From: Herpetosiphon geysericola
Lineage (GTDB): Bacteria > Chloroflexota > Chloroflexia > Chloroflexales > Herpetosiphonaceae
Reading direction: 5' to 3'
Assembly (NCBI RefSeq): GCF_001306135.1
Contig: NZ_LGKP01000003.1
Location: forward strand, 62,001-126,000
Length of the DNA stretch: 64,000 nucleotides
Shown here: positions 35,750-60,099 of the stretch, piece after piece
How the letters are laid out: each line of letters starts with the position of its first letter
Position numbering within the stretch: position 1 is the stretch's first letter
Position numbers and translations under genes: made by a program
Notes under the pieces: generated by a model
Seen by the model: the letters and a program-made list of their open reading frames with translations, nothing else
Databases searched by the model: none
Told to the model about the DNA's origin: nothing

Positions 35750-36784
35750 TTATGCTGTTTGGACGAGGCTATACACGACGCTTTGCAAATCTTTTTCGCT
35801 GCGAATTGAGCGCAAATCAAGCCCAATGCTCACCAGCATTTCGGCCACATCGGGCCGCACGCCGATCAGGGTCGTGCTTGCTCCCAACAGGCGAGCTGCA
35901 TTGCTCACTTTGAGCAACGTTCGGCCTGCATCACGATCCAAGGTTGGCACGCCAGTAATATCGAGAATCAAATTGCGGGTGCGTTGGCTTTTGAGATTGG
36001 CTAAAATTTGCTCGACCAACGTGCTCAAGCGCTCTGCATCCAAGGCTCCAACCAAGGGTACAACTAAGCTATGTTGGGTAATTGGCAAAATTGGCACGCT
36101 GAGGTTGCGAATGGTGGTTTGTTGTTCGGCCAGTTGTTGGGCCAATACCGCTTGGCTATCTGCTTGGGCTTGGACATCGCGCAAGGCCCGTTGCAAGGCC
36201 GAGGTTCGTTGCTCAATTTGCTGTTCGAGCGATTGTTGGCTGGCGCGCAAGGCTTGGTTGGCGCTGTTGCTGGCTTGCAGGCTGGTGGTCAATTGGCGGT
36301 GAATCTGCCAAAGCAAGCCCATAATGATCAAAATCGAAAGCGAGTTGAGGATAACGCGAACTGGCATCTCAGACCCAGCAACTTGATCGATTCGCAGGCG
36401 ATTGGTGATGCTGACGATGCTGACGACCCAGGCTAAACCGCAAATTCCCAGCAAGCGCTTACTATCAACAAACGGCAGTACGAGCACAATTGAAATAATT
36501 GTCACGGTGGCGATTGAGAGCAAGGTGAAAAAGCGAAACGAACCGACAATCACCAAGCTCAAGGCTGCCATGTTCATCAAGACCACTGCTGCTTGGTTGT
36601 ATTGGCGTTTGATCAGCCAAAATGCTGTGGCCAACAGCCCGCTAGTAACCGTAAAGCTGGCAACCGCAACCAAATCGCCCATAAATAGATACAGAAATAA
36701 GGAGATTAAGGAGCCGCCAAGCAGCCAATAGACTGTGGTTTTAAGCCGTTTGGTAACCAGTTCTTGCTCTGTGGGTTGCGACAT
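35750..36784 (-). CDS. Membrane STAS-domain protein (RsbR-like), second paralogue
   Basis: A 344-residue protein from the ATG at 36784, with AGGTAGGT upstream; the frame extends to 36868 without a site. Order: about six membrane segments, a coiled coil (RASQQSLEQQIEQRTSALQR), and a STAS domain (VPILPITQHSLVVPLVGALD, LILDITGVPTLDRDAGRTLL, ARLLGASTTLIGVRPDVAEM). It shares layout with the 10583-11611 gene. Here too the residue after the conserved Asp is not Ser or Thr but Arg (TLDRDAG), so it cannot be phosphorylated there. Possible role: stress or membrane-state sensor without the usual phospho-switch. Neighbours give no hint. Confidence 0.8.
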   Translation of the reverse strand: MSQPTEQELVTKRLKTTVYWLLGGSLISLFLYLFMGDLVAVASFTVTSGLLATAFWLIKRQYNQAAVVLMNMAALSLVIVGSFRFFTLLSIATVTIISIVLVLPFVDSKRLLGICGLAWVVSIVSITNRLRIDQVAGSEMPVRVILNSLSILIIMGLLWQIHRQLTTSLQASNSANQALRASQQSLEQQIEQRTSALQRALRDVQAQADSQAVLAQQLAEQQTTIRNLSVPILPITQHSLVVPLVGALDAERLSTLVEQILANLKSQRTRNLILDITGVPTLDRDAGRTLLKVSNAARLLGASTTLIGVRPDVAEMLVSIGLDLRSIRSEKDLQSVVYSLVQTA

Positions 36785-37046
36785 TGCGCACCTACCTTTG
36801 CCGTTGGAAGGGGAGAATCGCTCTAAGCATACAGAGTTTTGCAGCTGGATGCAAGAGCGATTTGACAAAGCGCGGATTATAGATTTATAATCGCTCCGAG
36901 CGTTTGAAGATAGAGGATTGAAGGGTTATCATTAATCCCCCTTTAACCTTTCCCCTAAATCAAAGAATAATGGTTTCTAGGCGGCATGTTGTGCTGCTAT
37001 GAATCATTAACGCTCATGATCACTTTCTTTTATTGAAAGGTCATGT

Positions 37047-40000
37047 ATGAAGCGTTCGTTGGCTCGCCCGTTTCAGGGTCTCATGCTATTAAGCTTATGC
37101 TTAAGCATGGTTTCACCTGCTGCCATCTCCCCAGCGGCAGCCCAATCGAAGCCACCATCGGTTGATAATCGCACCAATTCAGCTACGCCTGAACAATCGA
37201 TCCCCGATGCTGCGTGGCGACCTGCTGGCAGTAGTCCTTTATTGAAGCAAGATGTTTCGATTGCTGCACCAGAGCGTGAAGCAGTTGCTCCTACGACAAT
37301 TGCTGGCTCGCCGCCATTCGAGCTTTCTGAAGTTATCGACACCTATGATGAATATAGTACTGGTTTTGCTACTGCCAACGGGGTTGTGTATACCGTTGTT
37401 GGTGGCGCAGTTGTAGCCCGGTCATTAACCACCAAACAACAGCTTTGGTCGCGGCCTTTGCCTGTTGGTTATCCAACGATTTCTACCAAGATTTTCGTCT
37501 ATCAATCAGTTGTCGTGGTGACTTACCAAGGGTTTGTATTTGGCGATAATCCTGGATCTCTATCATCTGTCTATGGATTCCAAGTGGGTGATGGATCTGA
37601 CGCTTGGCCTGCCCGATCTTATCCTACAGACTTAACTGGTAGCTATCAGTATGAAAATCTCGTTTATTTTCAAACAGATAGCAGCTATGAGGGTCCTCAA
37701 AACCGATTACATGCTGTGAACATGCTCACTGGTGCTGAGGTGCTTAATAGCTCTATTCCTGAACTCGATGGATTGTTGGGTGTTTTCTCCTCGGTTATTG
37801 CTTTAAGTAACCGTTTAGTAAACCGTCAAACCCTAGCAACGGTGGTAACCCTTCCTACGCCATTGCTATCAACTGTGCGTTTTTATAGCACCGCAACTGC
37901 CGATGGCGCAATTGCCTTCTCAGAACAAAAGCCTGTCGATCTTAATACTAATACGTTTCAAACCAAAGTTGGCCTCTATAGCCAAACTGGCAGTGCAGGC
38001 AATACCTTCACGCTCAAGGGGCGGATTACCTCGGATATTTATGCTTCCGGCAATAAAATCTTTTTGCTTACCTGCGAATTCTGTAACCGAGCGACTTGGA
38101 CTGACATCATGCCGAATTTTGTCGCTACCCTGCATGTTTTCAGTACTAATGGCACAACTCTTACCCGTGAAGCAAGCGTAAAGATCCCGCAGCATGGTAA
38201 TTATTCAAGCATGACGGTTGCCGATGGCTATCTCTATATCGTTCCAGACGCCTATGGTGCATTTGATCAAAGCCCATTAATCGTCGCCTACGACATTGCC
38301 GCCAAAGCCCTTGTTTGGGAATCGAGCATTACCTTAAGCGATGGCTGGGGACACAAAGTTGCCCGTGAAGGTGCGTATCTTTTAGTTGGGATGACACAAC
38401 CTAGTAGCGGTGATATGTCGATTGTAGCGCTGCGCCAAGAAGCCCGTTTCAGCGACCAAGACCGCACCGATTGCGATTGTACTAAGAACGATGATTATCA
38501 ACGCTCAGCAAGTGTTAGCGACGAGAGCGATATTAACACCGCAACTGGGAACTATAACTATGGTACCCAGAGCATCGAAGTTGAATCGCCTGATGGAACC
38601 TTGCATGGTGGGCTTGAATACAATAGCCAAGCGGTGCATCCATCGACCCCAACTCCCCAACGTGGGCTATCGGCTGAACCATCGAGAGGGTTAGCAGCAG
38701 GTTGGACTCACAGCTACAATATGTGGCTTGATACCACAAGCGAACCAAATACTGTTATTTACAATGGTTCTGGCGGGGCGCGTTTACGCTTTACTGCTGG
38801 TGGCCCACTAGTGCCTGGAGTTCTTTTAGCTCCAAAATCAGGCATTTTTGCCGCACTTGATTTGGTAGCAAGCACTGATCCGCTTTTGCCTGCTGAAGTC
38901 TATGTATTTACAACCCGTCACGACACAAAACTCTATTTCAATCTTGAAGGTCAACTTTTATTGATTGAATCTGATAAAGGTCAACGAGTAAAAGTTATCA
39001 ATAAAGATTTCGGCAATGGCGTATGGGCGGTTGATCGGGTTGAATCCGTCACTGACCCCAGCATTCGGCTCAATTTTAGCTATACGAATGGCTATTTATC
39101 GTCAATCAGTGATCAAAACAGCCGGAGCATTACCTTCAACCATAATACGACGACTGGAAAGTTGACTAGCTATACCGATTTGGCCAATGCCCAAGAAACG
39201 TTTGGCTATAGCAACGACTTGTTGAGCGAACGCACGAATGCTTTGGGTCAATTGATCGAGCGCACGACCTTTATTTCGAGCACAATCAATAACGAACCAA
39301 TGTTTCGGGCAACAGCGCAACAAAGTTTCCCTAATAGCACCGATGGCACCAGCCGTAAGTTGCAATTCAACTATAACAGTGCCGATCGTCAAATTCAGTT
39401 GGTCAATCCTAGCACCAATGCTGTGCTAGAAACCCGCGTTGATCGTTATGCTGCCAACAACACGATCGAATCGCAAACCTTGAATGGGATTAAGCTGAGC
39501 GATGCAACGATTGGCACAAACTTGGTTGGGACTGGCAAGACTGATGCTTTAGGCCGTGTAACCAAGCAAACTAGCAATCGCATGGGCCGGATTACTAGCA
39601 CCACTGATGCTTTGCAACGCACTACCGTTATTACCTACGATGCAAAGTTCCGTCCAATTGCCCGGCTTGATTCTAATAATATCCGCAGTTTGCTCACATA
39701 CGATAATGCCAATAATGTCATTCGTGAAACCAATGGGATTACAACAATTTCACCTTTAGGTCAGACAACAATCTATACCTATAATGTGCGCTATCCTGGT
39801 AAAAATTGGCTTGAAATCTTACATAATCCCAATAATGTGCGCACGTGGTATGAATACAATACCAAGGGCCAAGTTACCAAACAAATTGATGGCTACGAAA
39901 GTGGCAATCCCCAAACCACAACCTATGAATATGATAGCCTTGGGCGCCAAATTAAAGTAACGACAGGGTTTGGTTCAGCTTCACCATTAACCACCAAGAC

Positions 40001-43000
40001 GGACTATCGCGCAGATGGCCAAGTAGTCCGAACGATTGTTAATCTGGTAGGCGATGGCTCAGTTCGGACTGCTAGCCAAAACATTACGACCGAATATGGC
40101 TATGATGCTTTGGGTCGTAAGCTTTGGACGAAGCTTCCCGATGGCAGCTATGATCAATATGTTTCCTACAATCAAGCTGGCCAAATTCGTTGGGTGGTTA
40201 AGAATCCAATCAACAGCAGCGGTAAACCTGCGTTGCCAACGTCTGATGTTACGGTTCCAACCTTCTACCCAGCCTTCCCAACCGGAAATCTTGTTACCAG
40301 CTATGGTTATGATGTGCAAGGCCGTACTAGTACAACAACGGTTACTGGGATCGTAACTGGCACCTTTAATCTGCAAACCATGCAATGGTCTGCAGCAACC
40401 GATCGTACCACGTTGGTCGAGTACGATGCGTTGAGCCGCCCAGTTACTACAACCTTGAACTATCGCCCAACGATCAATAATGGTCAATATAGCGCTACCT
40501 ACCCTGATGTAAACCTTAAGAGCTATACCTATTATGATGCAGTTGGTAATCCTGTATGGTACAAGGATCTCTTCCATCGCTGGACGAAAACTGACTATGA
40601 TGCCTTAAATCGCCCAGTGACAGTAACCTTGAATTATGAAAATGGGAATCCAGCGACAATCGATGCTGGCAACCTTTCGTGGGCCTCGCTCAACGATACC
40701 GACATTATTCAAGTTACCAAATACAATCAATTTGGGGTTGATCGCGTTATCAACAATTATGATCTACGCACCACTGGCGTATGGTCGGCTTCAGCTCCAA
40801 TTACCAATCTTGTAACGCTCAATAACTACAACAGTGCCGGGATTCAAATTGGCACAACCCAAAACAGCGCTCCAGGCGTTACTGGCCGGACTGATGTTAA
40901 CCGCACGACCACAACGAAGATTGATCTGGTAACTGGCCGAACATTGGCTTCCCAAGACGTGCTTGGGCAATGGAACGTGCCTGAATATGATACCCAAGGT
41001 CGAATCATCAAGACAATCAAGAACTGTCGGCAGGGAAGTACGATTGCCTTTACAAATTGTGCCACCAGCGCAGGTTCAAGCAGCGGCACGGTTGATCGGA
41101 ATGTGCCAAGTGATACAACCCTTTATGACTTCTTGGGCCGTGATTACGAAACCGTTTCACCAAATGGTACGGTAACCCATACCAATTATGATGTGCTTGG
41201 CCGTGGCTATCAAACCATTCAGAACTATGTTCAATCTCCAAACGGCAGCACCGCAACTCCCTATAATGTCACAGCGAGCGCAACCTATCTTGACGCTGGC
41301 GGTCGGCGTTGGAACACCACTGATCCAACGGGCAAAGTAACCCAATACGAAGCTAATGCACTTGGTCAAACGATTGCAGTAACTGATACTGCTGGCTTAC
41401 GCACTAGCTATGGGTTTGATGGTAGTGGTGCGCAACGCTGGATCAAGTTGCCAAATGGTACGGTTAACTTGACCTATGTTGATGGACTTGGCCGAACTGT
41501 CAAACAATTTACCAACTATCAAAATGGTACGAATGACGCTGGTGACGGCACGGTTAAGGATCTTGTCGTTACCAATACTTATAATGGTGCTGGCAATTTG
41601 GTGGCAACCATTGATCAAATTGGCCGCAAAACCAGCTATGGTTATAACTTACGCGGCAACTTGGTTAAGGTCGTCCAGAACGATTCACCTAGCTGTGTTG
41701 CTACTGCAAGCGATTGTCGGGTAACGACTGTGTATCGCTATGATCGGCTTGGCAACCAAACCGCGATTGTTGATGCTCATGGCAAAGTGCGCAGCAAAAC
41801 TTATGATGCTGCTGGCCGGATCGTAAGTGATACCGATGCTACAGGGCTGGCAAATCGCACGATTAACTATGAATATGATCTGCGCAATTTGCTAACCAAG
41901 ACAATTGGCTTCGGCACTGGCACCAATCGCCCAGTTATTGCCGTTAGCTACGATGAGCTTGGCCGCCAACGCACTGTTAGCACCGCGCCAACGACGGTTG
42001 CTGGCTTAACAGTTGTCCAAGAATATACCTACGATGTCCTTGGGCGCCGAACATCGTTCTTTGATGTTTCAGCAGTTGATGTTGCTAATAGCCGTACCGG
42101 GCTTATGACCTACAACTTCGATGCCTTGAATCGGATTACTGGCGAACAACGCTCGGTTGTTGGTGACCCAGTTGCCAACCAATGGACACTTGGCTATGGC
42201 TACGACGCTGCTGGCCGGGTAACCAACGTTGGTTCAACCAACTATGAATATGATACTGCTGGCCGCCCATGGAAAGTGCTACGTGGTGCTTCACTGGTCG
42301 CCGATTATAGCTACGATACTGTTGGTCGATTAAGCCAAACGCGCAATTATGAAAATAGCGTTGAACGGGCTAAAACGATCCGCGGCTATGATGAAATCAA
42401 CCGCATCAGTAGCTTAACCACAACGGGGATCAATAATCTCGGGGCTAATAGCCAATTATCGGCCTACACCTATACCTACAACCGTGCCAACGAACCTGAA
42501 ACCTTCGTTTCAAACCAACGTTTGACCAATGGTACGGTAACAAATGCAAGCCATACCTACACCTACGATAAATTAGGCCGCTTAATCACTGAGCTTGATA
42601 ATGGATTAAGCACAACCTCACAATACGCTTACGACAAACTTGGTAACCGCACAAGTGTCACGGTCAATGGTGTTAACAACACCAGCTTGAGCTTTGATGA
42701 TGCAGGTCGAGTGACAAACAGTGGTTGGAGCTATGACGCTTGGGGTAATGTGCTGAGCGACGGGGTTGGTAAAAATACCTATACCTACGATGGCTTGAAC
42801 CGCATGTTGACTACCACCAAAGCTGGCTCAACCTATGGCTACAAGTATCATGGCGAAACCATGATTTTGCGCTCGGTTGCCAACTCGGCAAATGGCAACG
42901 TGATGACTCCGCAAACCGCCTTGTTGCACAACACGATTACTGGTGGCTATAGCAGCCTCTTACGGATCTATTCGTTACCAGGTGCTGCAACCTATACAAC

Positions 43001-44234
43001 CTATGCCTATGGGCCATATGGTGGTTTGTTGTGGTCGGAATATACCAACACCAATCCAGTTCGACGCATGGCCTTCTTTAGCGATGCCCAAAATACCCTG
43101 CGCCAACAAGTTAACCTTACCGATGGCGTAACTAGTAACCAAGATACTGATGCTTGGGGTGTTTTGACTGGCGCAACTACGCCAATGTCATCGTTGCGCT
43201 ATACCGGCGAGTATACCGACTTTGATACGGGCTTAGTCTTCTTGCGCGCACGTTGGTATAACCCTGCTAATGGTACCTTCCAAGGCCGCGACCCGTTTGC
43301 TGGCTTTGCCGAACAACCATATTCGTTGCACCCATACCAATATGCTTATAGCAGCCCAACGGTCTATGCCGACCCAAGTGGCCGTACGCCTGGTACAGGC
43401 GAAGCGAGCAGTGGTGGGCGTGTGCCTCGCCCTAATGAAGGCGGCGAAAAGAAACAAGGTCCGCGGGAGAAATCGCTGGAAAGACAATTAGACAATGAAT
43501 TATGTGATCGTATCGTATCAGAAGATCTAACTATTTCTGTCACGGCCACTAAGGTTCGCTATGCGGATATGTATTCAGCCGCAAATGCTGCACGTGCAAT
43601 TGAGGGGGCATTTTTACCGTTTGGGCAGGGTTTGATAACTTATACTTATACATCCGCGTTGGAACTTCAGGGAGGTGCTACAGGAACCGTTGGAGGAAGT
43701 GGTAATATTGGTATTCCGGGGGTTGCTAATGGTAGTGTGAATGCCGAATTACAAACTAATGGGGTTATCAAATTCGTTTTTACCTCAGCAGATGCTGCCG
43801 CATTTAATCAAGCTGAGTTGACATATACACCGGGTTATGTGGGTCTGTTAAAAGCAATTGGAGTCAATCTTGCTAAAGTAGGCAGAACTGATTTATTTGA
43901 TGGCGCAAAAAACTTGAATATCTATCACCTAAGATATACATTCACAGTAGATAAGTGGGGTGATGATGAGAGATTTGAGGCGATTAAGGTTGGGTACGAG
44001 TTGTGTGTTTATTATAATCCTGTCTGTGATAATAATGAAACGGCTCTTATTGCTCCACCACGTGCCGAAGCAGTTGCTACCTCATTGGGTATGCGAGTAG
44101 AACATACATATGGTAGAAAACAACAAATAACAGAAGTTAATCTGACCGACATTAATGATTCTGCTGATCGAATATTATCGGTAGGAGGTCCAGGACAAAT
44201 AAGTCAGTTTACCAAAGAATATAAGTCGAAGTAG
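37047..44234 (+). CDS. Giant secreted YD/RHS-repeat protein with variable C-terminal tip
   Basis: A 2395-residue protein. ATG 37047 has GAAAGG upstream. A signal peptide (residues 1-33, MLLSLCLSMVSPAAISPAAA) exports it. Residues about 95-470 look like a PQQ/WD-like beta-propeller (GVVYTVVGGAVVARSLTTKQ). A Cys-rich joint DRTDCDCTKNDD (about 470-480) follows, then a cap and long arrays of YD repeats (YDAKFRPIARLDSNN type, about 860-1960), which form the RHS cocoon shell. The conserved RHS core RYTGEYTDFDTGLVFLRARW, YNPANGTFQGRDPFAG is at about 2051-2085, followed by an AT-rich tip (about 2118-2395) of unknown fold. In polymorphic toxins the tip is the toxic part; here no toxin motif was recognised and no immunity gene follows. 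Confidence 0.92.
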   Translation: MKRSLARPFQGLMLLSLCLSMVSPAAISPAAAQSKPPSVDNRTNSATPEQSIPDAAWRPAGSSPLLKQDVSIAAPEREAVAPTTIAGSPPFELSEVIDTYDEYSTGFATANGVVYTVVGGAVVARSLTTKQQLWSRPLPVGYPTISTKIFVYQSVVVVTYQGFVFGDNPGSLSSVYGFQVGDGSDAWPARSYPTDLTGSYQYENLVYFQTDSSYEGPQNRLHAVNMLTGAEVLNSSIPELDGLLGVFSSVIALSNRLVNRQTLATVVTLPTPLLSTVRFYSTATADGAIAFSEQKPVDLNTNTFQTKVGLYSQTGSAGNTFTLKGRITSDIYASGNKIFLLTCEFCNRATWTDIMPNFVATLHVFSTNGTTLTREASVKIPQHGNYSSMTVADGYLYIVPDAYGAFDQSPLIVAYDIAAKALVWESSITLSDGWGHKVAREGAYLLVGMTQPSSGDMSIVALRQEARFSDQDRTDCDCTKNDDYQRSASVSDESDINTATGNYNYGTQSIEVESPDGTLHGGLEYNSQAVHPSTPTPQRGLSAEPSRGLAAGWTHSYNMWLDTTSEPNTVIYNGSGGARLRFTAGGPLVPGVLLAPKSGIFAALDLVASTDPLLPAEVYVFTTRHDTKLYFNLEGQLLLIESDKGQRVKVINKDFGNGVWAVDRVESVTDPSIRLNFSYTNGYLSSISDQNSRSITFNHNTTTGKLTSYTDLANAQETFGYSNDLLSERTNALGQLIERTTFISSTINNEPMFRATAQQSFPNSTDGTSRKLQFNYNSADRQIQLVNPSTNAVLETRVDRYAANNTIESQTLNGIKLSDATIGTNLVGTGKTDALGRVTKQTSNRMGRITSTTDALQRTTVITYDAKFRPIARLDSNNIRSLLTYDNANNVIRETNGITTISPLGQTTIYTYNVRYPGKNWLEILHNPNNVRTWYEYNTKGQVTKQIDGYESGNPQTTTYEYDSLGRQIKVTTGFGSASPLTTKTDYRADGQVVRTIVNLVGDGSVRTASQNITTEYGYDALGRKLWTKLPDGSYDQYVSYNQAGQIRWVVKNPINSSGKPALPTSDVTVPTFYPAFPTGNLVTSYGYDVQGRTSTTTVTGIVTGTFNLQTMQWSAATDRTTLVEYDALSRPVTTTLNYRPTINNGQYSATYPDVNLKSYTYYDAVGNPVWYKDLFHRWTKTDYDALNRPVTVTLNYENGNPATIDAGNLSWASLNDTDIIQVTKYNQFGVDRVINNYDLRTTGVWSASAPITNLVTLNNYNSAGIQIGTTQNSAPGVTGRTDVNRTTTTKIDLVTGRTLASQDVLGQWNVPEYDTQGRIIKTIKNCRQGSTIAFTNCATSAGSSSGTVDRNVPSDTTLYDFLGRDYETVSPNGTVTHTNYDVLGRGYQTIQNYVQSPNGSTATPYNVTASATYLDAGGRRWNTTDPTGKVTQYEANALGQTIAVTDTAGLRTSYGFDGSGAQRWIKLPNGTVNLTYVDGLGRTVKQFTNYQNGTNDAGDGTVKDLVVTNTYNGAGNLVATIDQIGRKTSYGYNLRGNLVKVVQNDSPSCVATASDCRVTTVYRYDRLGNQTAIVDAHGKVRSKTYDAAGRIVSDTDATGLANRTINYEYDLRNLLTKTIGFGTGTNRPVIAVSYDELGRQRTVSTAPTTVAGLTVVQEYTYDVLGRRTSFFDVSAVDVANSRTGLMTYNFDALNRITGEQRSVVGDPVANQWTLGYGYDAAGRVTNVGSTNYEYDTAGRPWKVLRGASLVADYSYDTVGRLSQTRNYENSVERAKTIRGYDEINRISSLTTTGINNLGANSQLSAYTYTYNRANEPETFVSNQRLTNGTVTNASHTYTYDKLGRLITELDNGLSTTSQYAYDKLGNRTSVTVNGVNNTSLSFDDAGRVTNSGWSYDAWGNVLSDGVGKNTYTYDGLNRMLTTTKAGSTYGYKYHGETMILRSVANSANGNVMTPQTALLHNTITGGYSSLLRIYSLPGAATYTTYAYGPYGGLLWSEYTNTNPVRRMAFFSDAQNTLRQQVNLTDGVTSNQDTDAWGVLTGATTPMSSLRYTGEYTDFDTGLVFLRARWYNPANGTFQGRDPFAGFAEQPYSLHPYQYAYSSPTVYADPSGRTPGTGEASSGGRVPRPNEGGEKKQGPREKSLERQLDNELCDRIVSEDLTISVTATKVRYADMYSAANAARAIEGAFLPFGQGLITYTYTSALELQGGATGTVGGSGNIGIPGVANGSVNAELQTNGVIKFVFTSADAAAFNQAELTYTPGYVGLLKAIGVNLAKVGRTDLFDGAKNLNIYHLRYTFTVDKWGDDERFEAIKVGYELCVYYNPVCDNNETALIAPPRAEAVATSLGMRVEHTYGRKQQITEVNLTDINDSADRILSVGGPGQISQFTKEYKSK

Positions 44235-44266
44235 CCTTAATCATTCTTAATCGAATAATTAGTGTG

Positions 44267-44304
44267 AACCCCACCTATACCTGCACAGAGGTATAGGTGG
44301 GGTT
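44267..44304 (+). terminator. Strong intrinsic terminator of the YD/RHS gene
   Basis: A perfect 16-base-pair stem, AACCCCACCTATACCT and its complement, with loop GCACAG, followed by TTTATTTT. It begins 33 bases past the stop. Confidence 0.9.
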
Positions 44305-44350
44305 TTATTTTGTGTTGGGCTAGAGGTGTGATTATACTTAGCCGATACTT

Positions 44351-45316
44351 TTAGATACTATTGACCAATTGTTGGCTTGAACTGGTCTTTGCTGTATGTG
44401 AACTGGTTTTGAAGCCCTTGGCGATCAACCAAATTGCCAAACTCATTTCGGTAAGCGCCACTGGAATCGCCAAGAGTGCGCCCCAAGTCGAAAGTTGCTC
44501 GATAATTCCAAACATTTCCAACAGCGATGCAAGAAAAATGAGGCTTGAGCCAACCAAGCCCAGCGTGGCGATTGGCCGGGGAATTTGGCGGGTTTGAAAG
44601 AAAATGTAACTATACATAATTGTGTTGAGGCCAAGCATGAAATTTGGCCCAAGCATAAATGTCCAATCGTGGATGGCAATTAATGCGCTGCCAACCACGC
44701 GGTAGCTTTGCTCATCGGCGGCAGTTGTGCTGCTAAATTCACGGCTGATGCTAAGCAAAGCTAACATGCCCACGATCCCGATTGTAATCACCACTGCTTC
44801 GAGAAAGCGGAAACATAGGTGCGCCAAGGCAATCCGTTCGCTATATTGACGTAAGATTGGAAACATGGTGACGGCTGTGCCAACGGCGGTGGTGACGAGA
44901 ACCAGTTCCATGAGCGCTGCAACAACAATTTGGTTGGCATTGGCTGCGCCTGCGCGCAAATAGTCGCTTTCGGTTAGCAATGGTGCATACCACAGTAGGC
45001 CAAGAATCGAGCTGACTGCTGCTAAGATAAAAAAGATTCCAATGAGAATGGCGTGGCGGCGTTGGTTGGCCATGGTGCTTGCTCCTTGTGAAATGTTGAT
45101 TGGTTGCTCAAGTGGCACGACTGCAATCAAGCTCAAGCCTGAATCGCGAATTTTGCGCAAAACCCGATAGAGCGCTGCCTGATCAACGATTGAGCCAGTG
45201 AGCAGCGTATCGCCTTGCGGCGTATGGCTGATGGCTAAATCATCGAACCATTCAGCCCAACTTGGGTCAAGCTGGCCTTTGATCTGAATCTGATAGCGCA
45301 GCGATGAATTTGCCAT
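44351..45316 (-). CDS. DUF4386-type membrane protein fused to an N-terminal small domain
   Basis: A 321-residue protein from the ATG at 45316. Residues 1-80 form a small soluble domain (LRYQIQIKGQLDPSWAEWFD, GDTLLTGSIVDQAALYRVLR, KIRDSGLSLIAVVP) that in many Chloroflexota and Actinobacteria is a stand-alone protein. After a linker comes a second start-like MANQRRHAILIGIFFILAAV, then seven or so membrane helices of the DUF4386 family (to 321). An AGGAG seven to eight bases before the internal ATG at 45073 is retained in the frame, so the two parts look like neighbouring genes fused by loss of a stop. Biochemical role unknown. Confidence 0.75.
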   Translation of the reverse strand: MANSSLRYQIQIKGQLDPSWAEWFDDLAISHTPQGDTLLTGSIVDQAALYRVLRKIRDSGLSLIAVVPLEQPINISQGASTMANQRRHAILIGIFFILAAVSSILGLLWYAPLLTESDYLRAGAANANQIVVAALMELVLVTTAVGTAVTMFPILRQYSERIALAHLCFRFLEAVVITIGIVGMLALLSISREFSSTTAADEQSYRVVGSALIAIHDWTFMLGPNFMLGLNTIMYSYIFFQTRQIPRPIATLGLVGSSLIFLASLLEMFGIIEQLSTWGALLAIPVALTEMSLAIWLIAKGFKTSSHTAKTSSSQQLVNSI

Positions 45317-45443
45317 ACCTTCCTGCTTTGAACTATGCGTCGTGTGCGATCTGCGAGCAGGATACAATTCTGGTCGCGGCCTGTCATACCTCAAATGAGT
45401 TATTCGACGAGGTAGGCTGCATATTTATTGTTGGTTCTAGGTT

Positions 45444-50331: not shown

Positions 50332-53300
50332 TCAGGCTAAAACTGGTAATTGTTTGATAATCGCGACTGTTTTGAGGCTGACGTTGATCACCTGTTTGAT
50401 CAAGCGCACAATCGCCTCCGGATCATCAAGGTTGTTGGGATCGCTCAGAATACCGCTGCGCTTATCGCTGCTCACTTGGTATTGATCAAGCACCCATTCA
50501 AGCGCCGAGCGGTTGCCCAAACGATATTCGTAAACTTCTGGCGGAATTCCTTCAAGGGTTAAGGCTTGGTTGTAGATAATCGCGCTTTTGTCGCGACTGA
50601 GCCGCATTTTCTCAACTCGCCACGTCCATGGCACGGCGCGATTTTCCACATGCTTCAGCTTATACTCGGCCTGTTGCTCGTAATTCAGATGCAGTTCGGC
50701 CAATTGCCTGCCTGCTGCACTCAGTTGCGCGAACTGCGCTGGCGCAAGTAATGGGATGCGCGGTAGTTCTAGTTTGAGGTTGGCGGCGTAGCGCTCGCGA
50801 TAGCTCGGGACGTGCAACAAGCCATACACGTAGTAGAAAATATCCCATTTATCGAGCTTGCTGTTGCCTGTGTGGGCTTGAAATCGCTGCAAGGCCCAAT
50901 CGCTAATGTTCTCCCGCCGATTGCTGCCATCTTCATCGTAAATGTAGAATGGAAAGCATTGATTAATAGAATTGCCAGTAATTCCACATTTTGCATCTGG
51001 AATAATATTTGATACAAATATCGTCCAATGATCTGCTCCAATACTCGCAACACAAATGCTAATATTTTCATTTTCAGCATCTGAATTAGGGTAAATTTTA
51101 TGTTGGCTATATCTACGTTGATTTAAAATCGAATCAAAATAAATCAATTTTTTTGTGAATGGTCGATATAATGATTTACGAACTTTTGTATTAGCAAAAT
51201 TAATATCAATATCTTTTATTAGTGCATTTTTTAGTAGATCACTCCATTTTATTTTTGTTTCATCATTATTTACAAATCTATCAATATCGATTTTATCACT
51301 TTTTTTCCAACGAATCTTCTCATATTCATAAAATATTAATAAATTCCTTATATTTATTTCTAGTGCTTGACTATTGAAGTTATAAACCCAAGAATCACGA
51401 CTAGTAAGAACCCCTACAGAATAATCTTTGAAAATTGTTGGCTCAGCACCGACGCTGCCGGAGCGTGCTTCTTTGCTGCCGATCGGAATAAATGCGGCAA
51501 AATCGTCGCTCATGCCTTCGGTAATCCAGGTGCCATTGCTGGTGGGCTGCAACTGTTGCCAAGCAATGCTGCGGTAATCGGTGTGTTGGTTGAGATAGCT
51601 ATATTTCTCGCCGCGCCGCCACCATTCATCCAACCGAGCATACAGCAACTCTGCTTGCTGGCGTTCGGGATATTTGGCGCGATTGCGAATCAACAAGGTA
51701 ATGGCAACACTGACCTGAATGCCAAACACATTGTGAGTTGTGCCCGAAAGTTTCGGATTTTTGCGCACATTGCCGCCCAGATCCAACACATAAATGCTGG
51801 TAAAATCTTTGAGCAACTCTTTGCGCATCCCATCGAAGGCAATTTGCTCAACAAACGAGCCATTGCTGACATAGGCAATCACGCCATCGTTGTCGCCAAG
51901 GCGGTCGGTGGCCCAGCGAAAAAAGCGCGAATACATATCGTAGAGCTTGGTTTGCAACGAAGCTTTTGACGATTTTGCATAGGTTTGACGAATCCGCGTA
52001 TCGACATGTGGATATTTGCGATTTTTATTATTATCATTTTCGTTTTGCTGGCCGACGTTATAGGGTGGATTGCCAATAATCACAAAAATCGGTGCATCTT
52101 GCTGTTGTTGCACCCGTTGCGAATTTTCTGCTACAAACATCGACGTTTGCGGCTTATTAGCTTCCATTTCTAAGGTGTCGGCAAAACAAATTCCATCAAA
52201 TGCTACATAATTCTGCATACGATCATAAAATTCGTGTTCGATATTTTGGGCTGCAATATAATAGGGCAGCAGCAAAATCTCATTACAATGTAATTCATGG
52301 CGATATTTATGCTCAAGCGTACTATTTTGCAACTGATTCAGAATTTCGAGCATAAACGTACCAGTACCGACACATGGATCGAGCACGTGCACGCCTTTAT
52401 CGCTCAAACTTGAATCAAACTGATCGCGCAATAATTGCTCGACTGATGCGACCATCCAACGCACAATGGGCGCAGGCGTATAGACAATTCCATGCGTATC
52501 GGCAATATTGGTTGAATAACCCTGAAAAAACTGCTCATAGACTGTATTCAAAAAGGTTGATTTTTCGCTATAATCGCTGATGGTACGCGCCGAATTTTCG
52601 ATCGCTTTATAAAAATAATCGAGACTTGCCAAAAACTTATCGCGGCTAAATGCCCGTTTGGTCAACACCGTAATAACTTTTTCCAATTCGGCGGCAATCG
52701 CATTGCGGCGCACAAAATCGGGGTTATCAAACACCGAGCGGAAAATGCGTTCAGTCAGCAAATGCTGAATTAACATCTCTTCGACTTGCTGCTCGGTTGT
52801 TTGCGGATTGAGCGAACTGCGGCAAAGCGCCACAAAACTTGCAAACGCTAGCTTAAAATCACGGCTATGCTTTAATTCATTGGCAATAATTTCAGCAACA
52901 CTAGCGGCCAAATCGGGAATTTCCCGCCGAAAACGGGCAACTGCCTGGTGAAAATCATCAACTTGTGGCTCGCTATAGCTAAAAAACGTCTCAAGCAAAC
53001 GCAGCAATTGACGGTCATCGTGCATATCGATGCTTAATGCGCGCTGATTATTTTGGTATAACACTGCATGGCGACTATTTTCAAACAAGGTGTTTTTGGT
53101 GGGATAGCCCGCTTGGATCTTGCTGGTAATTTCTCGTTCCAAATCATCGGCGGGATCTTTTGCTTCCCAGATGCCACGGCGCAAATTTAAGCTATCGCGT
53201 AACTCGCCATCGAAGCGCAATGATTTGCGCGAACCGACTAAGAGCGTTTGTTCGGCAACCACAGTCATGCCCCAAGCACGGCCTGCATCGCCCAACAAAT

Positions 53301-53406
53301 TTTGAAAGGCAATGCGAATCGCTCCCTCATTGACTCCACCTGCCTTTAGCACCCGCGCTAATTCCGATCGATAAGCGTTTAACACTTTGGGGGCAATCGT
53401 CGGCAT
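50332..53406 (-). CDS. Type ISP/IIG-like restriction endonuclease-methyltransferase
   Basis: A 1024-residue fused enzyme. N-terminal PD-(D/E)xK-like nuclease: FDGELRDSLNLRRGIWEAKD (about 66-85, with D and E-A-K) and GYPTKNTLFENSRHAVLYQN. From about 340: N6-adenine methylase with the SAM motif LDPCVGTGTFML (about 343) and the catalytic NPPYN (about 445). The C-terminal block YYVYGLLHVPSYRERYAANL, KLELPRIPLLAP is the Type ISP specificity domain. The middle of the specificity part (51020-51380) is strikingly AT-rich. No helicase domain is seen between nuclease and methylase, unlike LlaBIII/LlaGI. It should cut and protect the same site; target unknown. No other restriction gene is nearby. Confidence 0.88.
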   Translation of the reverse strand: MPTIAPKVLNAYRSELARVLKAGGVNEGAIRIAFQNLLGDAGRAWGMTVVAEQTLLVGSRKSLRFDGELRDSLNLRRGIWEAKDPADDLEREITSKIQAGYPTKNTLFENSRHAVLYQNNQRALSIDMHDDRQLLRLLETFFSYSEPQVDDFHQAVARFRREIPDLAASVAEIIANELKHSRDFKLAFASFVALCRSSLNPQTTEQQVEEMLIQHLLTERIFRSVFDNPDFVRRNAIAAELEKVITVLTKRAFSRDKFLASLDYFYKAIENSARTISDYSEKSTFLNTVYEQFFQGYSTNIADTHGIVYTPAPIVRWMVASVEQLLRDQFDSSLSDKGVHVLDPCVGTGTFMLEILNQLQNSTLEHKYRHELHCNEILLLPYYIAAQNIEHEFYDRMQNYVAFDGICFADTLEMEANKPQTSMFVAENSQRVQQQQDAPIFVIIGNPPYNVGQQNENDNNKNRKYPHVDTRIRQTYAKSSKASLQTKLYDMYSRFFRWATDRLGDNDGVIAYVSNGSFVEQIAFDGMRKELLKDFTSIYVLDLGGNVRKNPKLSGTTHNVFGIQVSVAITLLIRNRAKYPERQQAELLYARLDEWWRRGEKYSYLNQHTDYRSIAWQQLQPTSNGTWITEGMSDDFAAFIPIGSKEARSGSVGAEPTIFKDYSVGVLTSRDSWVYNFNSQALEINIRNLLIFYEYEKIRWKKSDKIDIDRFVNNDETKIKWSDLLKNALIKDIDINFANTKVRKSLYRPFTKKLIYFDSILNQRRYSQHKIYPNSDAENENISICVASIGADHWTIFVSNIIPDAKCGITGNSINQCFPFYIYDEDGSNRRENISDWALQRFQAHTGNSKLDKWDIFYYVYGLLHVPSYRERYAANLKLELPRIPLLAPAQFAQLSAAGRQLAELHLNYEQQAEYKLKHVENRAVPWTWRVEKMRLSRDKSAIIYNQALTLEGIPPEVYEYRLGNRSALEWVLDQYQVSSDKRSGILSDPNNLDDPEAIVRLIKQVINVSLKTVAIIKQLPVLA

Positions 53407-53724: not shown

Positions 53725-55506
53725 ATGCGATTTTTTCGCTGGGTAGGGATTGCAAGTTTGGGGTTGGCACTCAGTTGGCAAGCGGCGGCGGCGACCATCA
53801 ATCAGCTGCACGCTGTGCACACGACAATTACGGTTAATACTGTTGTTGACGATTTTACGCCCAATAATGGCACATGTTCGTTGCGCGAGGCGATTTACGC
53901 GGCCTCTAGCGACCTTCCGTTCGATGCGTGTCCTGCTGGTTCGGCCAGCGATACGATTCAATTGGCCGCAGGTAGCTATCAATTAAGCCTGACTGGTGCG
54001 GAAAGCCCGCAGACTGGCGATCTTGATCTGAATGGCACAATTCAGATTACTGGCGTGACCTCAGCAACCAGCATTATCGATGCGAATGGCATTGATCGGG
54101 CCTTGGAAATTACTGGTGGCAACGTGAGCTTGCGCAATCTGCAAGTGCGCGAAGGGTTTCGCCCAGGAACCACTGAAGAGTTCACCGTCTATGGCCAAGG
54201 CATTTTGCAGCATGCAGGCTCATTGACGATCGACAATAGCATAATCACGACCAATGGCCGGAGTGCTAGTGGCGATATGTATGGTGGTGGCATTGCCTCG
54301 CTGACTGGCTATTTGACAATTACCAATAGTTTAATTGCAAATAACCACCTTCCCTATGTCTATCTGGAGACGAGTGGTGCTGGAGCAGGGCTGTACATCG
54401 ATGCAAGTACGGTAACCATCAATAATTCCCAATTTAGTCAATCGCGTGCGGGAACTGGCGCTGCCATCTATAACAGCGAAGGTCATTTGACCGTCAGCAA
54501 TTCGCGCATCGACCACCATATTAACGATGGTAGTTATTCAGCAGCAATCGTCACCGACTTGGGCCAGATGCAGATCAGCAATAGTTTGTTTAGCAATAAC
54601 GCCCCTAGTGCGCTGTGGCTGCATCGCGGCTCGGCGAGCGTCGTAGGCAGCACATTTGCTGGTAACGGCGGCAATGGCACATTCTATTGCTCGAATGGTG
54701 GAGCGATTGGTATCTTTAAAGGGAATTTAACTGTCAGCAATTCGCGCTTTATCAATAATTGGGCGAATACAGCTGGGGCAATTGGCATTTTGACCGGAAC
54801 CCTAAACATTGACCATAGTGAATTTAGCGGCAATGATGCGCGTGAATTCATGGCTGGCCGCGACATGTGTATTGGCGATGGTGGGGCAATCAGCACGGGC
54901 TATGGCGGCCAAGTGCGGCTTGATTCCAGCACGCTGGCCTATAATCGCGCCGATGGTTTTGCCGCCGCAATCTATCACAATAATAATTCCAGCCCATTGA
55001 TTATCACCAACTCAACGATTGTGTCGAATACCAATAGTTTGCTCAACCCCGAAGATCAGTCGATTGTAGTAAACGATGGGCCGGGGATTGCAGCACTACG
55101 CAATGCGACCGTGCAACTGAGCAACACCATTTTGGCGGGCAACCGTAACGAGGCCAGCAATGTGGCCCGCGATTGTTCGGGCCTGTTCTTCAGTCACGGC
55201 CATGTCTTGATTGAACATGCAGATGCAGTCTGTGATCTGACCCAAGCCACAGGCGATTTGCTTGGCGTGCAGCCGCAGTTGGACAGTTTTGATTTTCATG
55301 GTGGCTTCACCCGCAGCTTTAGCCTAGATCCAGCCAGTCCTGCAATTGATGCAGGCTCCAGCGATTGTGGCGCAACCGATCAACGCTATTTCCCACGGCC
55401 TGTCGATGGTGATAACGACGATCAAGCATTGTGTGATATTGGGGCTTTTGAATTTGGTGCGGCTGCAATGCAGCATAGCATTTATCTTCCCATGACAATC
55501 AAATAA
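53725..55506 (+). CDS. CSLREA-domain secreted parallel beta-helix protein A
   Basis: A 593-residue exported protein. Signal peptide: MRFFRWVGIASLGLALSWQA. Then the CSLREA N-terminal domain: ITVNTVVDDFTPNNGTCSLR, EAIYAASSDLPFDACPAGSA. Many short TI-NS-I-NN turns follow (SLTIDNSIITTNG, HLTVSNSRIDHH, LTVSNSRFINNWANTAGAIG), the signature of a right-handed beta-helix. It ends QHSIYLPMTIK, a YLPxTxK tail also present in the next gene. Such proteins are thought to be surface adhesins or carbohydrate-binding or polysaccharide-modifying proteins; no catalytic residues can be assigned. The ATG is preceded by GTGAGGTAG. Confidence 0.85.
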   Translation: MRFFRWVGIASLGLALSWQAAAATINQLHAVHTTITVNTVVDDFTPNNGTCSLREAIYAASSDLPFDACPAGSASDTIQLAAGSYQLSLTGAESPQTGDLDLNGTIQITGVTSATSIIDANGIDRALEITGGNVSLRNLQVREGFRPGTTEEFTVYGQGILQHAGSLTIDNSIITTNGRSASGDMYGGGIASLTGYLTITNSLIANNHLPYVYLETSGAGAGLYIDASTVTINNSQFSQSRAGTGAAIYNSEGHLTVSNSRIDHHINDGSYSAAIVTDLGQMQISNSLFSNNAPSALWLHRGSASVVGSTFAGNGGNGTFYCSNGGAIGIFKGNLTVSNSRFINNWANTAGAIGILTGTLNIDHSEFSGNDAREFMAGRDMCIGDGGAISTGYGGQVRLDSSTLAYNRADGFAAAIYHNNNSSPLIITNSTIVSNTNSLLNPEDQSIVVNDGPGIAALRNATVQLSNTILAGNRNEASNVARDCSGLFFSHGHVLIEHADAVCDLTQATGDLLGVQPQLDSFDFHGGFTRSFSLDPASPAIDAGSSDCGATDQRYFPRPVDGDNDDQALCDIGAFEFGAAAMQHSIYLPMTIK

Positions 55507-55527
55507 AAAACTCGTGCTCTGCAAACG

Positions 55528-55562
55528 TGCCAGTTGGATGTTGCATCCAGCTGGCATTTTTT
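55528..55562 (+). terminator. Intrinsic terminator of CSLREA protein A
   Basis: Stem TGCCAGTTGGATG / CATCCAGCTGGCA (one G-U pair) with loop TTG, followed by TTTTTT. The same terminator recurs after the paralogue. Confidence 0.9.
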
Positions 55563-55784
55563 GTTGCGTGCCTACGGATAATGCCTGATAACTAGGAGCC
55601 AGTATTTGCACACCAACTCCATAGACAGATATATAGTGCGCACAAGTACAATCGGCGATGCTAGGATACCCGTTGATTGAGTGAATGCATAGTTTAGGTT
55701 TGCTGGATCTGGTTAATCAGAGCAACCTTAACACTTCATGATCTCGTTCTTTGCTAGTGTATTTTGTTGTAGTGAGGTAGGGAT

Positions 55785-57578
55785 ATGCGATTTCTGCATT
55801 GGATTGGGCTTGGGAGTTTGGGATTGGCACTCAGTTGGCAAGCAGCGGCGGCGAATAGCAATCAACCGCAAGTGTTGCACACCACAATTACCGTCAATAC
55901 TGTTGTTGACGATTTTACGCCCAATAATGGCACATGTTCGTTGCGCGAGGCAATTCAGGCTGCCAATACTGATTTGGCAGTTGATGCATGTCCTGCTGGT
56001 TCGGCCAGCGATACGATTCAACTGGCCGCAGGTAGCTATCAATTAAGCCTGATTGGTAGTGATGGCCCGCAGACTGGCGATCTTGATCTGAATGGCTCAA
56101 TTCAAATTACTGGCGTGACCTCAGCCACCAGTATTATCGATGCCAATCGGATTGATCGGGCTATGGAAATTACTGGCGGCAATGTACGTTTAAGCAATCT
56201 GCAAGTGCGTGAAGGTTTCCTTGATGGCATTCCCGAACAATCAACAGTTTATGGGCATGGCATTTTGCATCATGCAGGTTCATTGACGATTGATAGTAGT
56301 TTAATTACGACTAATGGGATTATTACCAGCCCGGCTACCTTTGGTTACAATAATTATGGTGGTGGCATTGCCTCGCTGAGTGGCTATTTAACGATCACCA
56401 ATAGCCTAATTGAGCGCAATCGGGTGCGTCATGTTTATATGGGTGGCATTGGCTCGGGCGGTGGGCTGTATATTGATGCAACCAGCGTGAATATGAGCAA
56501 CTCGACGTTGCGCGAATCGCAAGGTGCTGCTGGTTCGGCTATTTATAATAGTCGTGGACGCTTAAACATCAGCAATTCCACAATTGCGGGCCATGTTGGC
56601 ACATTCGACGGTTCAGCTGCTATCGCCAACGTGCGTGGAGAGCTGACGCTGAGTGATACCAACTTAAACAACAATACCCCAAAAGCACTCGTTCTTGGTG
56701 GCGGCTCAGCGACGATTCGCAATAGTAGTTTTATTGGCAATGGTGGCGGAGGCTCGTTCTATTGCTCATATGGCGGCGCGATTGCAAGCTATGGTCAATT
56801 GGCGATAAGCAACTCACGCTTTGTTGGCAATTGGGCGAATGAAGCTGGGGCAATTGGGGTTGTGACTGGGACAACAACGATCGATCATAGCGAATTTAGT
56901 GCGAATTACGCCCAAATAACTTCAACCGGACGCGATGAATGTCGCGGCAATGGCGGGGTCATTCAAACAGGCAATAATGGCAAAGTTAGCATTGATTCGA
57001 GTACACTGGCCTATAACCGCGCCGATGGCTATGCAGCCGCAATCTATCACTCCTACAACCCAAATCCCTTGATCATTCACAATTCGACGATTGTTTCGAA
57101 TACGAACTCCTTATTGCACCCTTACACCCAAGAAATTGTCGAGGATGATGGACCGGGCATTGCGGCGCTTAACAGCTCAAGCGTGCAACTGAGCAACACC
57201 ATTTTGGCGGGCAACCGCAACGAGGCCAGCAATGTGGCCCGCGATTGTTCGGGCCTGTTCTTAAGTCACGGCTATGTCTTGATTGAACATGCAGATGCAG
57301 TCTGTGATCTGACCCAAGCCACAGGCGATTTGCTTGGCGTGCAGCCCAAGCTGGAGAGCTTTGCTTTCCATGGTGGTGCGACTCGCAGCTTTAGCCTGAG
57401 CGCCGCTAGCCCTGCAATTGATGCAGGCTCCAGCGATTGTGGCCCAACCGATCAACGCTATGTTCCACGGCCTGTTGATGGTGATAACGACGATCAAGCA
57501 TTATGTGATATTGGGTCCTTCGAATTTGCTGCAGCTGCAATGCAGGATAGCGTCTATCTTCCCATGACAATGAAATAA
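55785..57578 (+). CDS. CSLREA-domain secreted parallel beta-helix protein B
   Basis: A 597-residue paralogue of the previous protein, with the same order: a signal peptide (MRFLHWIGLGSLGLALSWQA), CSLREA domain (NNGTCSLREAIQAANTDLAV, DACPAGSASDTIQLAAGSYQ), beta-helix turns and the tail QDSVYLPMTMK. The ATG follows GTGAGGTAGGG, nearly the same leader as gene A. Long stretches at both ends are almost identical in DNA to gene A while the middle (about residues 170-400) has many changes, which suggests duplication plus gene conversion. Function as for A: surface or secreted protein, unproven. Confidence 0.85.
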   Translation: MRFLHWIGLGSLGLALSWQAAAANSNQPQVLHTTITVNTVVDDFTPNNGTCSLREAIQAANTDLAVDACPAGSASDTIQLAAGSYQLSLIGSDGPQTGDLDLNGSIQITGVTSATSIIDANRIDRAMEITGGNVRLSNLQVREGFLDGIPEQSTVYGHGILHHAGSLTIDSSLITTNGIITSPATFGYNNYGGGIASLSGYLTITNSLIERNRVRHVYMGGIGSGGGLYIDATSVNMSNSTLRESQGAAGSAIYNSRGRLNISNSTIAGHVGTFDGSAAIANVRGELTLSDTNLNNNTPKALVLGGGSATIRNSSFIGNGGGGSFYCSYGGAIASYGQLAISNSRFVGNWANEAGAIGVVTGTTTIDHSEFSANYAQITSTGRDECRGNGGVIQTGNNGKVSIDSSTLAYNRADGYAAAIYHSYNPNPLIIHNSTIVSNTNSLLHPYTQEIVEDDGPGIAALNSSSVQLSNTILAGNRNEASNVARDCSGLFLSHGYVLIEHADAVCDLTQATGDLLGVQPKLESFAFHGGATRSFSLSAASPAIDAGSSDCGPTDQRYVPRPVDGDNDDQALCDIGSFEFAAAAMQDSVYLPMTMK

Positions 57579-57600
57579 AAAAACTCGTGCTCTGCAAACG

Positions 57601-57635
57601 TGCCAGTTGGATGCTGCATCCAGCTGGCATTTTTT
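57601..57635 (+). terminator. Intrinsic terminator of CSLREA protein B
   Basis: TGCCAGTTGGATG-CTG-CATCCAGCTGGCA followed by TTTTTT, a duplicate of the terminator after gene A. Confidence 0.9.
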
Positions 57636-57786
57636 GTTGCGTGCATGCTCATTCTACCTGATCATACTTGCCAAGAATGCTATAACAGTGGTGGTAGGCT
57701 CGCGTGTTGCCGAGCGATGCAAAGGCCTGCCTGAGAGCAACGAGGGGTTTGGTTGCCAGTTATTTACCTTTATAGGAGTAGCAATC

Positions 57787-60099
57787 ATGATTCGTAAACG
57801 CTATCTCGTGGTGATCGGCTTGGTTTTAGCGAGCACATGGCTTCTGCCTGCTGCCGCACGCGATCAAGCTAACCAGCAACCAGCGGCAGTTTTAGCGCCC
57901 TCTGGCGAAACGATTACGTACCAAGGGATGTTACGCGAAAGTGGTAGCGTCGCCAATGGCGTTTTTGATTTTCAATTTGGTTTGTATTCGACCGCAACAG
58001 GTGGCACCGCCTTAGCAACGATAACCCAAGACGATTTGAATGTGAGCAATGGGCTTTTTACAACCCAACTTAGCTTTGGCGAAGATTTCTTTAATGGTGA
58101 AAGCCGTTGGATTGAGCTAGCAGTCAAGGCCGATACGAGCACGAGTTATACGATCCTTACGCCGCGTCAGCAGGTGACAGCTGCTCCCTTGGCTTTGGCC
58201 TTGCCTGGCTTCTGGACGCGCCAAAACGTATTTAGCCCCAACATAATTGGTGGTTACGAAGGGAATACTATCACAAGTAATAGCATTGGTAGCACGATTA
58301 ACGGTGGTGGCAACGTTGATAATGTAAATAGTGCCTACGATAGCTATAGCGCAATTGGCGGTGGCGCTGGTAACCGTGCTGGTAGCGATGATGGTGCACC
58401 GAGTAATGATGGCTATTCCACGATTGGCGGTGGGATCAACAACATTGCGAGCCAAGAATATGTGGTGATTGGCGGTGGTCAAACGAACAATGTTAACGGC
58501 GCTTGGTCAACGATTGGCGGCGGCATCAACAATACGATCAGTGGCCGTTATAGTGTGATTGCTGGTGGCGGCGGCCCAACTGGCAATACAATCTACGACG
58601 ATTATGGCACGATTGCTGGGGGCAGCGAAAATAGCGCTGGCTTAACCGGCGATGCAGTCAGCCAAATGTATGCAACTGTTGGCGGAGGCCGCGCCAATCT
58701 GGCCAGCGATAATTATACGATTGTTGGCGGTGGCCGCAGCAACAGCGTGAGCGACGACTATTCGACAATTGCTGGTGGCTACAACAATAGTATTGTGGCG
58801 CAATTTGCCACGATCAGCGGCGGCGGTAGTGCTACTAGCACTCAAGCCAATCGGGTTTACGACAATTATGGCACCATCGGCGGTGGGACTAATAACGCCG
58901 CAGGCCTTAGTGGCGATACCATCAATCAGCAATATACCACGGTCAGTGGTGGCACAAGCAACATTGCTAGCGAAGATGCAGCTACGGTTGGCGGTGGTAG
59001 CGGCAATACTGCCAGTGCTAATTACACCACGGTTGCTGGGGGCACAAGCAATACTGCTAGCGGCGATACCAGCAGCATCGGCGGTGGCCAACTCAATGCA
59101 GCGAGTGGAAGTTACTCGGTGATTGCTGGAGGCCGTGGCAATACCGCTTCTTCCAATATTGCAGGGGTCGGTGGTGGTCAATCGAATCAAGCTACCAACA
59201 CTGGAGCTTTTGTTGGTGGCGGCCAGACCAACACAGCGACTGGCCAATATTCAGTTGTCGCTGGTGGCGTTAATAATGATGCAACCAATACCTATGCTTC
59301 AGTCGTTGGTGGCATCAACAACCAAGCTGCTGGGGCTGGCACCTTCGTTGGTGGTGGCCAGAACAACAACGCCAATAGCACACTCTCGGCAATTCTTGGC
59401 GGGAGCGGCAATACAACCTTAGCCGATTATACCGTTGCCGCTGGCGAGAATGCAGTTGCGGCCCATGCTGGAAGTTTTGTCTGGGCTGGGCAACAAACCG
59501 ACAAAAAAGATACAGTTTCGACGACTGCACCCGGCCAGTTTATTGTGCGTGCTCCAGGCGGAGCGTGGTTTGGGAGCAGCACCAAGGTTGATATTCCCGC
59601 TGGTGCAATCTTGGCGACTGAAAGTGGCGCTTTTCTGAGTAAAGGTGGCACATGGTCCAATTCATCAGATAAAAATCTCAAATCGAATTTTACCGCAATT
59701 GACCCTCAGCTGCTGCTCGATCAGCTGGCTGCGATTCCCGTTCAAGCGTGGAACTATACCAGCGAAGGCTCAAGCGTGCGCCATATTGGCCCAACGGCCC
59801 AAGATTTTTATACAGCCTTTGGCTTAGGCAGCGACGATCGGCATATAGCTACGGTTGATGCAGATGGCGTGGCGTTGGCAGCGATTCAAGGCTTGCATAG
59901 TTTAGCCACAGCCCAAGCCAAAACCATCGATCAACAGGCCGATCAATTGGCTGCCTTCGATGAGCGACTTGCTGCCTTGGAGCGTGGTCAACCAGCCCAA
60001 AACGGGTTTTTCTGGCTTTGGCTGCTGCCACTATGCGGATTAGCACTTGGCTTAGGTTGGCTGCTTGGGCGGCGGAGCGCCAAGGGTCAACGTATATGA
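57787..60099 (+). CDS. YadA-like head protein with Peptidase S74 chaperone domain and C-terminal anchor
   Basis: A 770-residue protein from the ATG at 57787 (GGAG eight bases upstream). A signal peptide and short beta domain ([20 protein letters not shown]) lead into a head of Gly-rich repeats of about 14 residues ([34 protein letters not shown]), roughly residues 160-600, like trimeric autotransporter or tail-fibre beta-rolls. Then comes the S74 intramolecular chaperone: [20 protein letters not shown], with Ser627 and Lys632 spaced as in the self-cleaving dyad. A coiled coil ([20 protein letters not shown]) and a membrane segment ([20 protein letters not shown]) end it. It should form trimers and self-cleave before Ser627, unusual because the anchor lies on the far side. 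Overlaps the next gene by ATGA. Confidence 0.85.

What the first reader, a model, noticed from the sequence alone, without database searches (positions are those of the whole stretch)
43400..44234. Foreign-looking toxin-like tip on the YD/RHS protein with no immunity gene
After the RHS core (ends near 43330) the composition drops: sample blocks of 60 bases have 23 and 17 G+C, against 29 in the core. The tip is about 280 residues with no recognised motif. Polymorphic toxins gain tips by recombination, normally with an immunity gene just after; here a strong terminator and a convergent gene follow directly. Either the tip is not toxic to the producer (acts outside) or the immunity is elsewhere.
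Basis: partly seen in the sequence, partly recalled or inferred. Interest (0 to 1): 0.52.

Follow-up and report, generated by a model that had tools for sequence, protein, structure and literature searches.

The report
Orphan tip on secreted Rhs protein
A soil bacterium carries a large exported shell-type protein ending in a one-of-a-kind tip with no protective gene beside it; the tip may be a weapon against other organisms, but similar unprotected tips turn out to be common in this genus.

Summary
The 2395-aa Rhs/YD gene (37047-44234) looks like a Sec-exported protein: signal peptide, PQQ_2 propeller, Rhs core. The conserved core ends at DPSG (43382), and a 283-residue tip follows. Tip G+C is 43% against 47% in the core; third-position G+C is 30% against 44%. 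A 17-pair terminator hairpin and a convergent DUF4386 gene come next; the 116-base gap has no room for an immunity gene.

The tip matches nothing in Pfam, NCBIfam, PHROGs, PADLOC, PDB sequences or the public genomes searched. The host is a Herpetosiphon, and the whole gene is an islet missing at this site in 5 of 5 other genomes of the genus.

Controls weaken the "foreign, unusual" reading. Across 29 Rhs C-termini in the genus, the tip is lower in G+C than the core in 29 of 29, and only 15 of 29 have a same-strand gene within 250 bases. Another unprotected tip is conserved in three genomes.

Best reading: an autocleaved effector tip on a WapA-like exported Rhs shell, probably aimed at non-kin. 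Toxicity is not shown, and AlphaFold models without homologues were unusable. New member of a known kind.

The parts
36863..44357 (.). One-gene islet: stretch without homology in the sister genomes, between the STAS gene and the end of the DUF4386 gene
   Evidence: Homology to G003 and G005 stops at 36862 and resumes at 44358; no rhs gene at this site in 5 of 5 other genomes of the genus
37047..44234 (+). Rhs/YD-repeat gene, 2395 aa
37047..37145 (+). Likely Sec signal peptide (aa 1-33)
   Evidence: Basic start, hydrophobic stretch from aa 9, Ala-rich end; cleavage site by eye, no predictor run
37353..37763 (+). PQQ_2 propeller match (aa 103-239)
   Evidence: PF13360, E 9.2e-8, above cut-off; aa 41-474 has no relative in 157 other class genomes
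43149..43382 (+). Rhs-associated core, aa 2035-2112, with DPFAG-X22-DPSG
   Evidence: TIGR03696 E 3.1e-13; both Asp kept, codons at 43290 and 43371
43383..44231 (+). Orphan tip, 283 aa, of which the first 30 or so are a Gly/Pro/charged linker
   Evidence: No family or homologue found
44266..44305 (+). Terminator-like hairpin
44351..45394 (-). Convergent DUF4386 gene, older than the islet
   Evidence: PF14329 E 1e-46; present in 6 of 6 genomes of the genus
35750..36868 (-). STAS-domain gene, left neighbour of the islet
   Evidence: PF01740 E 1.9e-11; kept in the sister genomes

Best explanation
The gene encodes a WapA-like Rhs protein. It is exported through Sec, carries a PQQ_2 propeller in front, and has a YD-repeat shell that encloses its own C-terminal tip and cuts it free with the Asp pair of the DPFAG-X22-DPSG motif. 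The tip is an effector released towards other organisms. Because its usual victims are not close kin, no adjacent immunity gene is kept. Shown: the domain order, the sharp core/tip boundary, both Asp residues, the islet and the missing neighbour gene. Inferred: export, shell folding, cleavage, effector activity and target.
For: Signal peptide, propeller and Rhs core; sequence match to solved Rhs shells including Tse5; motif with both Asp (mechanism from PMC10684867 passages); Sec-exported relatives exist (WapA, PMC12704120 passages). Tip ends are exchanged in this genus (L080/L088 are 89% identical over 114 aa, then unrelated), and some carry nuclease or HINT domains. No ORF in the 116-base gap. 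Zhang et al. 2012 read tips without adjacent immunity as aimed at distant organisms (PMC3482391 passages). An unprotected tip conserved in three genomes shows the arrangement can be stable.
Against: No toxin family, catalytic motif, fold or homologue for the tip. The tip is in one genome only, so selection on it cannot be tested. Missing neighbours are common in the genus (14 of 29), so absence alone is weak evidence about the target.
Confidence: 0.42

Rival explanations
1. An ordinary kin-directed polymorphic toxin whose immunity gene is unlinked, or was lost when the tip was acquired.
For: Several Rhs genes of the genus do have a close same-strand gene (15 of 29), so kin-directed pairs exist here; Zhang et al. 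mention distantly located immunity genes (PMC3482391 passages).
Against: The islet ends right after the hairpin and brings no second gene. The neighbours on both sides are older than the islet. No search for an unlinked immunity gene was possible without a known family.
Confidence: 0.25
2. A non-toxic extracellular domain (binding, adhesion or shell plug) that happens to sit at the tip position.
For: Strand-rich look in two unreliable predictions; other Rhs tips of the genus carry LysM, a cell-wall binding domain; no catalytic motif and no toxin family.
Against: The position after DPSG is where toxin domains sit in Rhs proteins, and the autocleavage Asp pair is kept.
Confidence: 0.23
3. A decayed tip that has lost its activity, so that no immunity gene is needed.
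For: No homologue, so purifying selection could not be tested; a dead tip would need no immunity gene.
Against: The frame is intact to the stop, with a coding-type position bias (G+C 0.52/0.43/0.28 at positions 1/2/3), and a terminator follows.
Confidence: 0.1

Closest known systems
WapA of Bacillus and Streptococcus (Sec-exported Rhs polymorphic toxins)
   Same: Signal peptide, large N-terminal domain, YD-repeat shell, variable C-terminal tip (WapA from PMC12704120 passages)
   Different: PQQ_2 propeller in place of the wall-binding region; tip without a family; no adjacent immunity gene
Type VI Rhs effectors RhsA, Rhs1 and Tse5
   Same: Core sequence matches the solved shells; Asp-pair motif at the core end
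   Different: Signal peptide and propeller instead of a PAAR-type front; spacing X22 with DPxxG instead of DPXGX18-19DPXG; unrelated tip
Rhs tips without adjacent immunity genes (Ntox43, latrotoxin-CTD in Zhang et al. 2012)
   Same: Polymorphic-toxin layout without a neighbouring immunity gene (PMC3482391 passages)
   Different: No Pfam match to any such family; their domains were not compared one by one
Unprotected tip of Herpetosiphon L077/L078/L082
   Same: Linker plus tip of similar length, convergent gene directly after, no immunity gene
   Different: No detectable homology to the window tip (hhalign probability 0.2%); present in three genomes, the window tip in one

Membership tests
Rhs/YD-repeat shell proteins | RHS repeats and Rhs-associated core | tested here: met
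   PF05593 E 1.3e-33; TIGR03696 E 3.1e-13; solved Rhs shells matched
Rhs/YD-repeat shell proteins | Asp-pair autocleavage motif DPXGX18DPXG at the core end | tested here: inconclusive
   Both Asp present as DPFAG-X22-DPSG; spacing differs, and cleavage was not tested
Polymorphic toxins | Constant body with exchanged C-terminal tips | tested here: met
   Sharp boundary at aa 2112; window tip unlike 25 other tips of the genus
Polymorphic toxins | Linked immunity gene | tested here: not met
   No ORF in the 116-base gap, convergent older gene after it
Polymorphic toxins | Tip is toxic | not testable with these tools
   Needs an expression assay; no toxin family matched
WapA-like exported Rhs | Sec signal peptide | tested here: inconclusive
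   Hydrophobic stretch and Ala-rich end by eye and Kyte-Doolittle; no signal-peptide predictor available

The most novel reading that the evidence does not exclude
The tip is the first member of a new effector domain carried by a Herpetosiphon Rhs shell with a propeller front, released outside the cell against non-kin such as prey or competitors, so that the usual toxin-immunity pairing has been dropped; the genus holds several such unprotected tips beside protected ones.
Probability: 0.3. Interest if true: 0.5.

Novelty: new member of a known kind. Interest (0 to 1): 0.27.

Why it matters
If true, it adds an unclassified tip domain to the Rhs repertoire. The genus also offers a natural comparison: 29 Rhs C-termini in six related genomes, roughly half with and half without a close same-strand gene, which would let one ask whether unprotected tips are the ones used against other species.

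Tried and rejected
Homologue searches that gave nothing: relatives, 60 genomes (14 weak non-self rows, E 0.033-0.68, read as unrelated genes or antisense frames); phylum, 400 genomes (one extra row, G197, E 0.006, with three stops inside and not reproduced by tblastn); class, 158 genomes (five weak rows already seen); GTDB pattern scan (reaches close relatives only); IMG/VR; phages; plasmids (one row, Robbsia, E 0.9, dropped as chance). PDB sequences: best E 1.3.

Structure: two AlphaFold runs without homologues, pLDDT 31 and 33; not sent to a fold search, because a low-confidence model gives meaningless matches.

Similarity of the window tip to the L077/L078/L082 tip: tested and rejected; best phmmer value among genus tips 0.19.

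Helical pore-former: no strongly hydrophobic 19-residue stretch in the tip, maximum 0.92. Mobile-element ends at the islet edges: no shared direct repeat of 8-14 bases and no inverted repeat of 9-16 bases between the two edge stretches searched. DUF4386 as immunity protein: rejected, present in 6 of 6 genomes of the genus while the tip is in one.

A second genome-contig scan with the Rhs core found nothing; plasmids with the core or the N-terminal domain likewise. Pfam on six putative neighbour immunity proteins gave no known immunity family; one weak HEAT match and one weak YqgU match, both below cut-off.

The count of 15 of 29 is rough. In two of the 14 'without' (G001 1668k, G002 494k) the script picked an antisense ORF where searches show a same-strand 155-aa gene; one (G005:C155) reaches the contig end after 202 bases. 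Without those three, 11 are left, the window among them. Of the 15 'with', one is a truncated cassette and two share a 500-aa gene despite different tip ends, so the neighbour need not be immunity.

Full report
Check of the observation. The reading frame 37047..44234 encodes 2395 aa. Its N-terminus looks like a Sec signal peptide, followed by a PQQ_2 propeller match (aa 103-239, E 9.2e-8), a weak DUF6531 match at aa 496-582 (below cut-off), RHS repeats (E 1.3e-33) and an Rhs-associated core to aa 2112. The core matches solved Rhs shells (7q97 E 2.9e-20; 8cp6, Tse5, E 4.7e-9). After DPSG (43382) comes a 283-aa tip of lower G+C (43.0% against 47.4%; GC3 29.6% against 44.3%). A strong hairpin (44266-44305, z -5.6) and the convergent DUF4386 gene follow, with no ORF in the gap.

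What the tip is. No family in Pfam, NCBIfam, PHROGs or PADLOC (weak Pfam rows below cut-off only) and no PDB sequence (best E 1.3). Apart from the producer itself, no relative in 60 relatives, 400 phylum or 158 class genomes (overlapping sets; weak rows inspected and rejected), in a GTDB pattern scan, IMG/VR, phages or plasmids. It has no transmembrane stretch, 2 His, 1 Trp and 3 Cys. AlphaFold without homologues failed (pLDDT 31 and 33). The N-terminal domain (aa 41-474) is equally alone among the 158 class genomes, so both ends of this protein are private and only the middle is shared.

Where it sits. One sister Rhs gene is identical over 7125 bases to a plasmid of Herpetosiphon aurantiacus DSM 785, which names the genus. 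In G003 and G005 the STAS and DUF4386 genes that flank the islet lie next to each other with about 190 and 315 bases between; homology to the window stops at 36862 and resumes at 44358. In G002 and G004 two other genes lie between them; in G001 the order differs; none of the five stretches read has an rhs gene there. The gene is thus a one-gene islet in a variable spot. No direct or inverted repeat was found between its edges.

Controls from the genus. All Rhs-core C-termini in six genomes gave 29 sites, counting split matches once and leaving out one weak fragment with two stops, G004:C40. Tip G+C is below core G+C in 29 of 29. A same-strand ORF of 60 aa or more starts within 250 bases in 15 of 29 (caveats in Tried and rejected). 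Of 20 other tips scanned (of 28), 6 have a Pfam family above cut-off: PT-HINT in four, one of these with a WHH nuclease, and LysM in two. The low G+C, the lack of a family and the lack of a neighbour gene are therefore each common here. Tips of L077, L078 and L082 form one family (41% and 79% identity to L078) followed by the same convergent gene: a stable tip with no neighbouring immunity gene. It shows no homology to the window tip. Two further tips, L080 and L088, are 89% identical over the first 114 residues and then diverge, which suggests that tip ends are exchanged in this genus.

Mechanism. Rhs shells enclose the tip and cut it off with an Asp pair in a DPXGX18DPXG motif (PMC10684867, passages). 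The window has DPFAG-X22-DPSG with both Asp. WapA proteins are the Sec-exported version (PMC12704120, abstract and passages). Zhang et al. 2012 (PMC3482391, passages) state that linked immunity separates polymorphic toxins from conventional ones, and read tips without adjacent immunity as aimed at distant organisms. On that basis an exported, autocleaved effector aimed at non-kin is the most likely reading, but toxicity and target are inference. Hidden immunity and a non-toxic surface domain remain open. That Herpetosiphon preys on other bacteria is recalled and was not read in a paper here.

Literature. Searches for Herpetosiphon with Rhs (one paper, unrelated by its title), with YD repeat (none), with predation and toxin (19 papers, 12 listed, none on Rhs by title) and Chloroflexota with Rhs and polymorphic toxin (two, neither on this by title) showed no description of this gene. 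That covers only the open-licence library.

Verdict. Observation confirmed; interpretation partly supported; an ordinary kind of gene with an orphan tip.

Noticed in passing
window 37167-38469: The propeller-bearing N-terminal domain of the same Rhs protein (aa 41-474) has no relative in 157 other class genomes, so the front end is as private as the tip.
   Followed up: partly
window 50332-53406: A 1024-aa Type ISP restriction-modification enzyme (Type_ISP_C, ISP_coupler, N6_Mtase) covers the lowest-G+C stretch of the window, down to 36%.
   Followed up: no
window 53725-60099: Two tandem genes of about 595 aa that match the same sister protein at about 75% and 69% (Beta_helix in the first), then an 830-aa gene with a Peptidase_S74 endosialidase-chaperone domain.
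   Followed up: no
window 4111-6576: An 821-aa NB-ARC plus TPR protein over a second low-G+C stretch.
   Followed up: no
L106 and L123 (G009:C2, about 288 to 322 kb): At least a dozen Rhs-core ends in about 33 kb of one genome of the same order, mostly in short frames, resembling an array of spare tip cassettes.
   Followed up: no
L080 and L088: Two Rhs genes with LysM-bearing tips share a first tip half and the same downstream gene but have different tip ends.
   Followed up: partly
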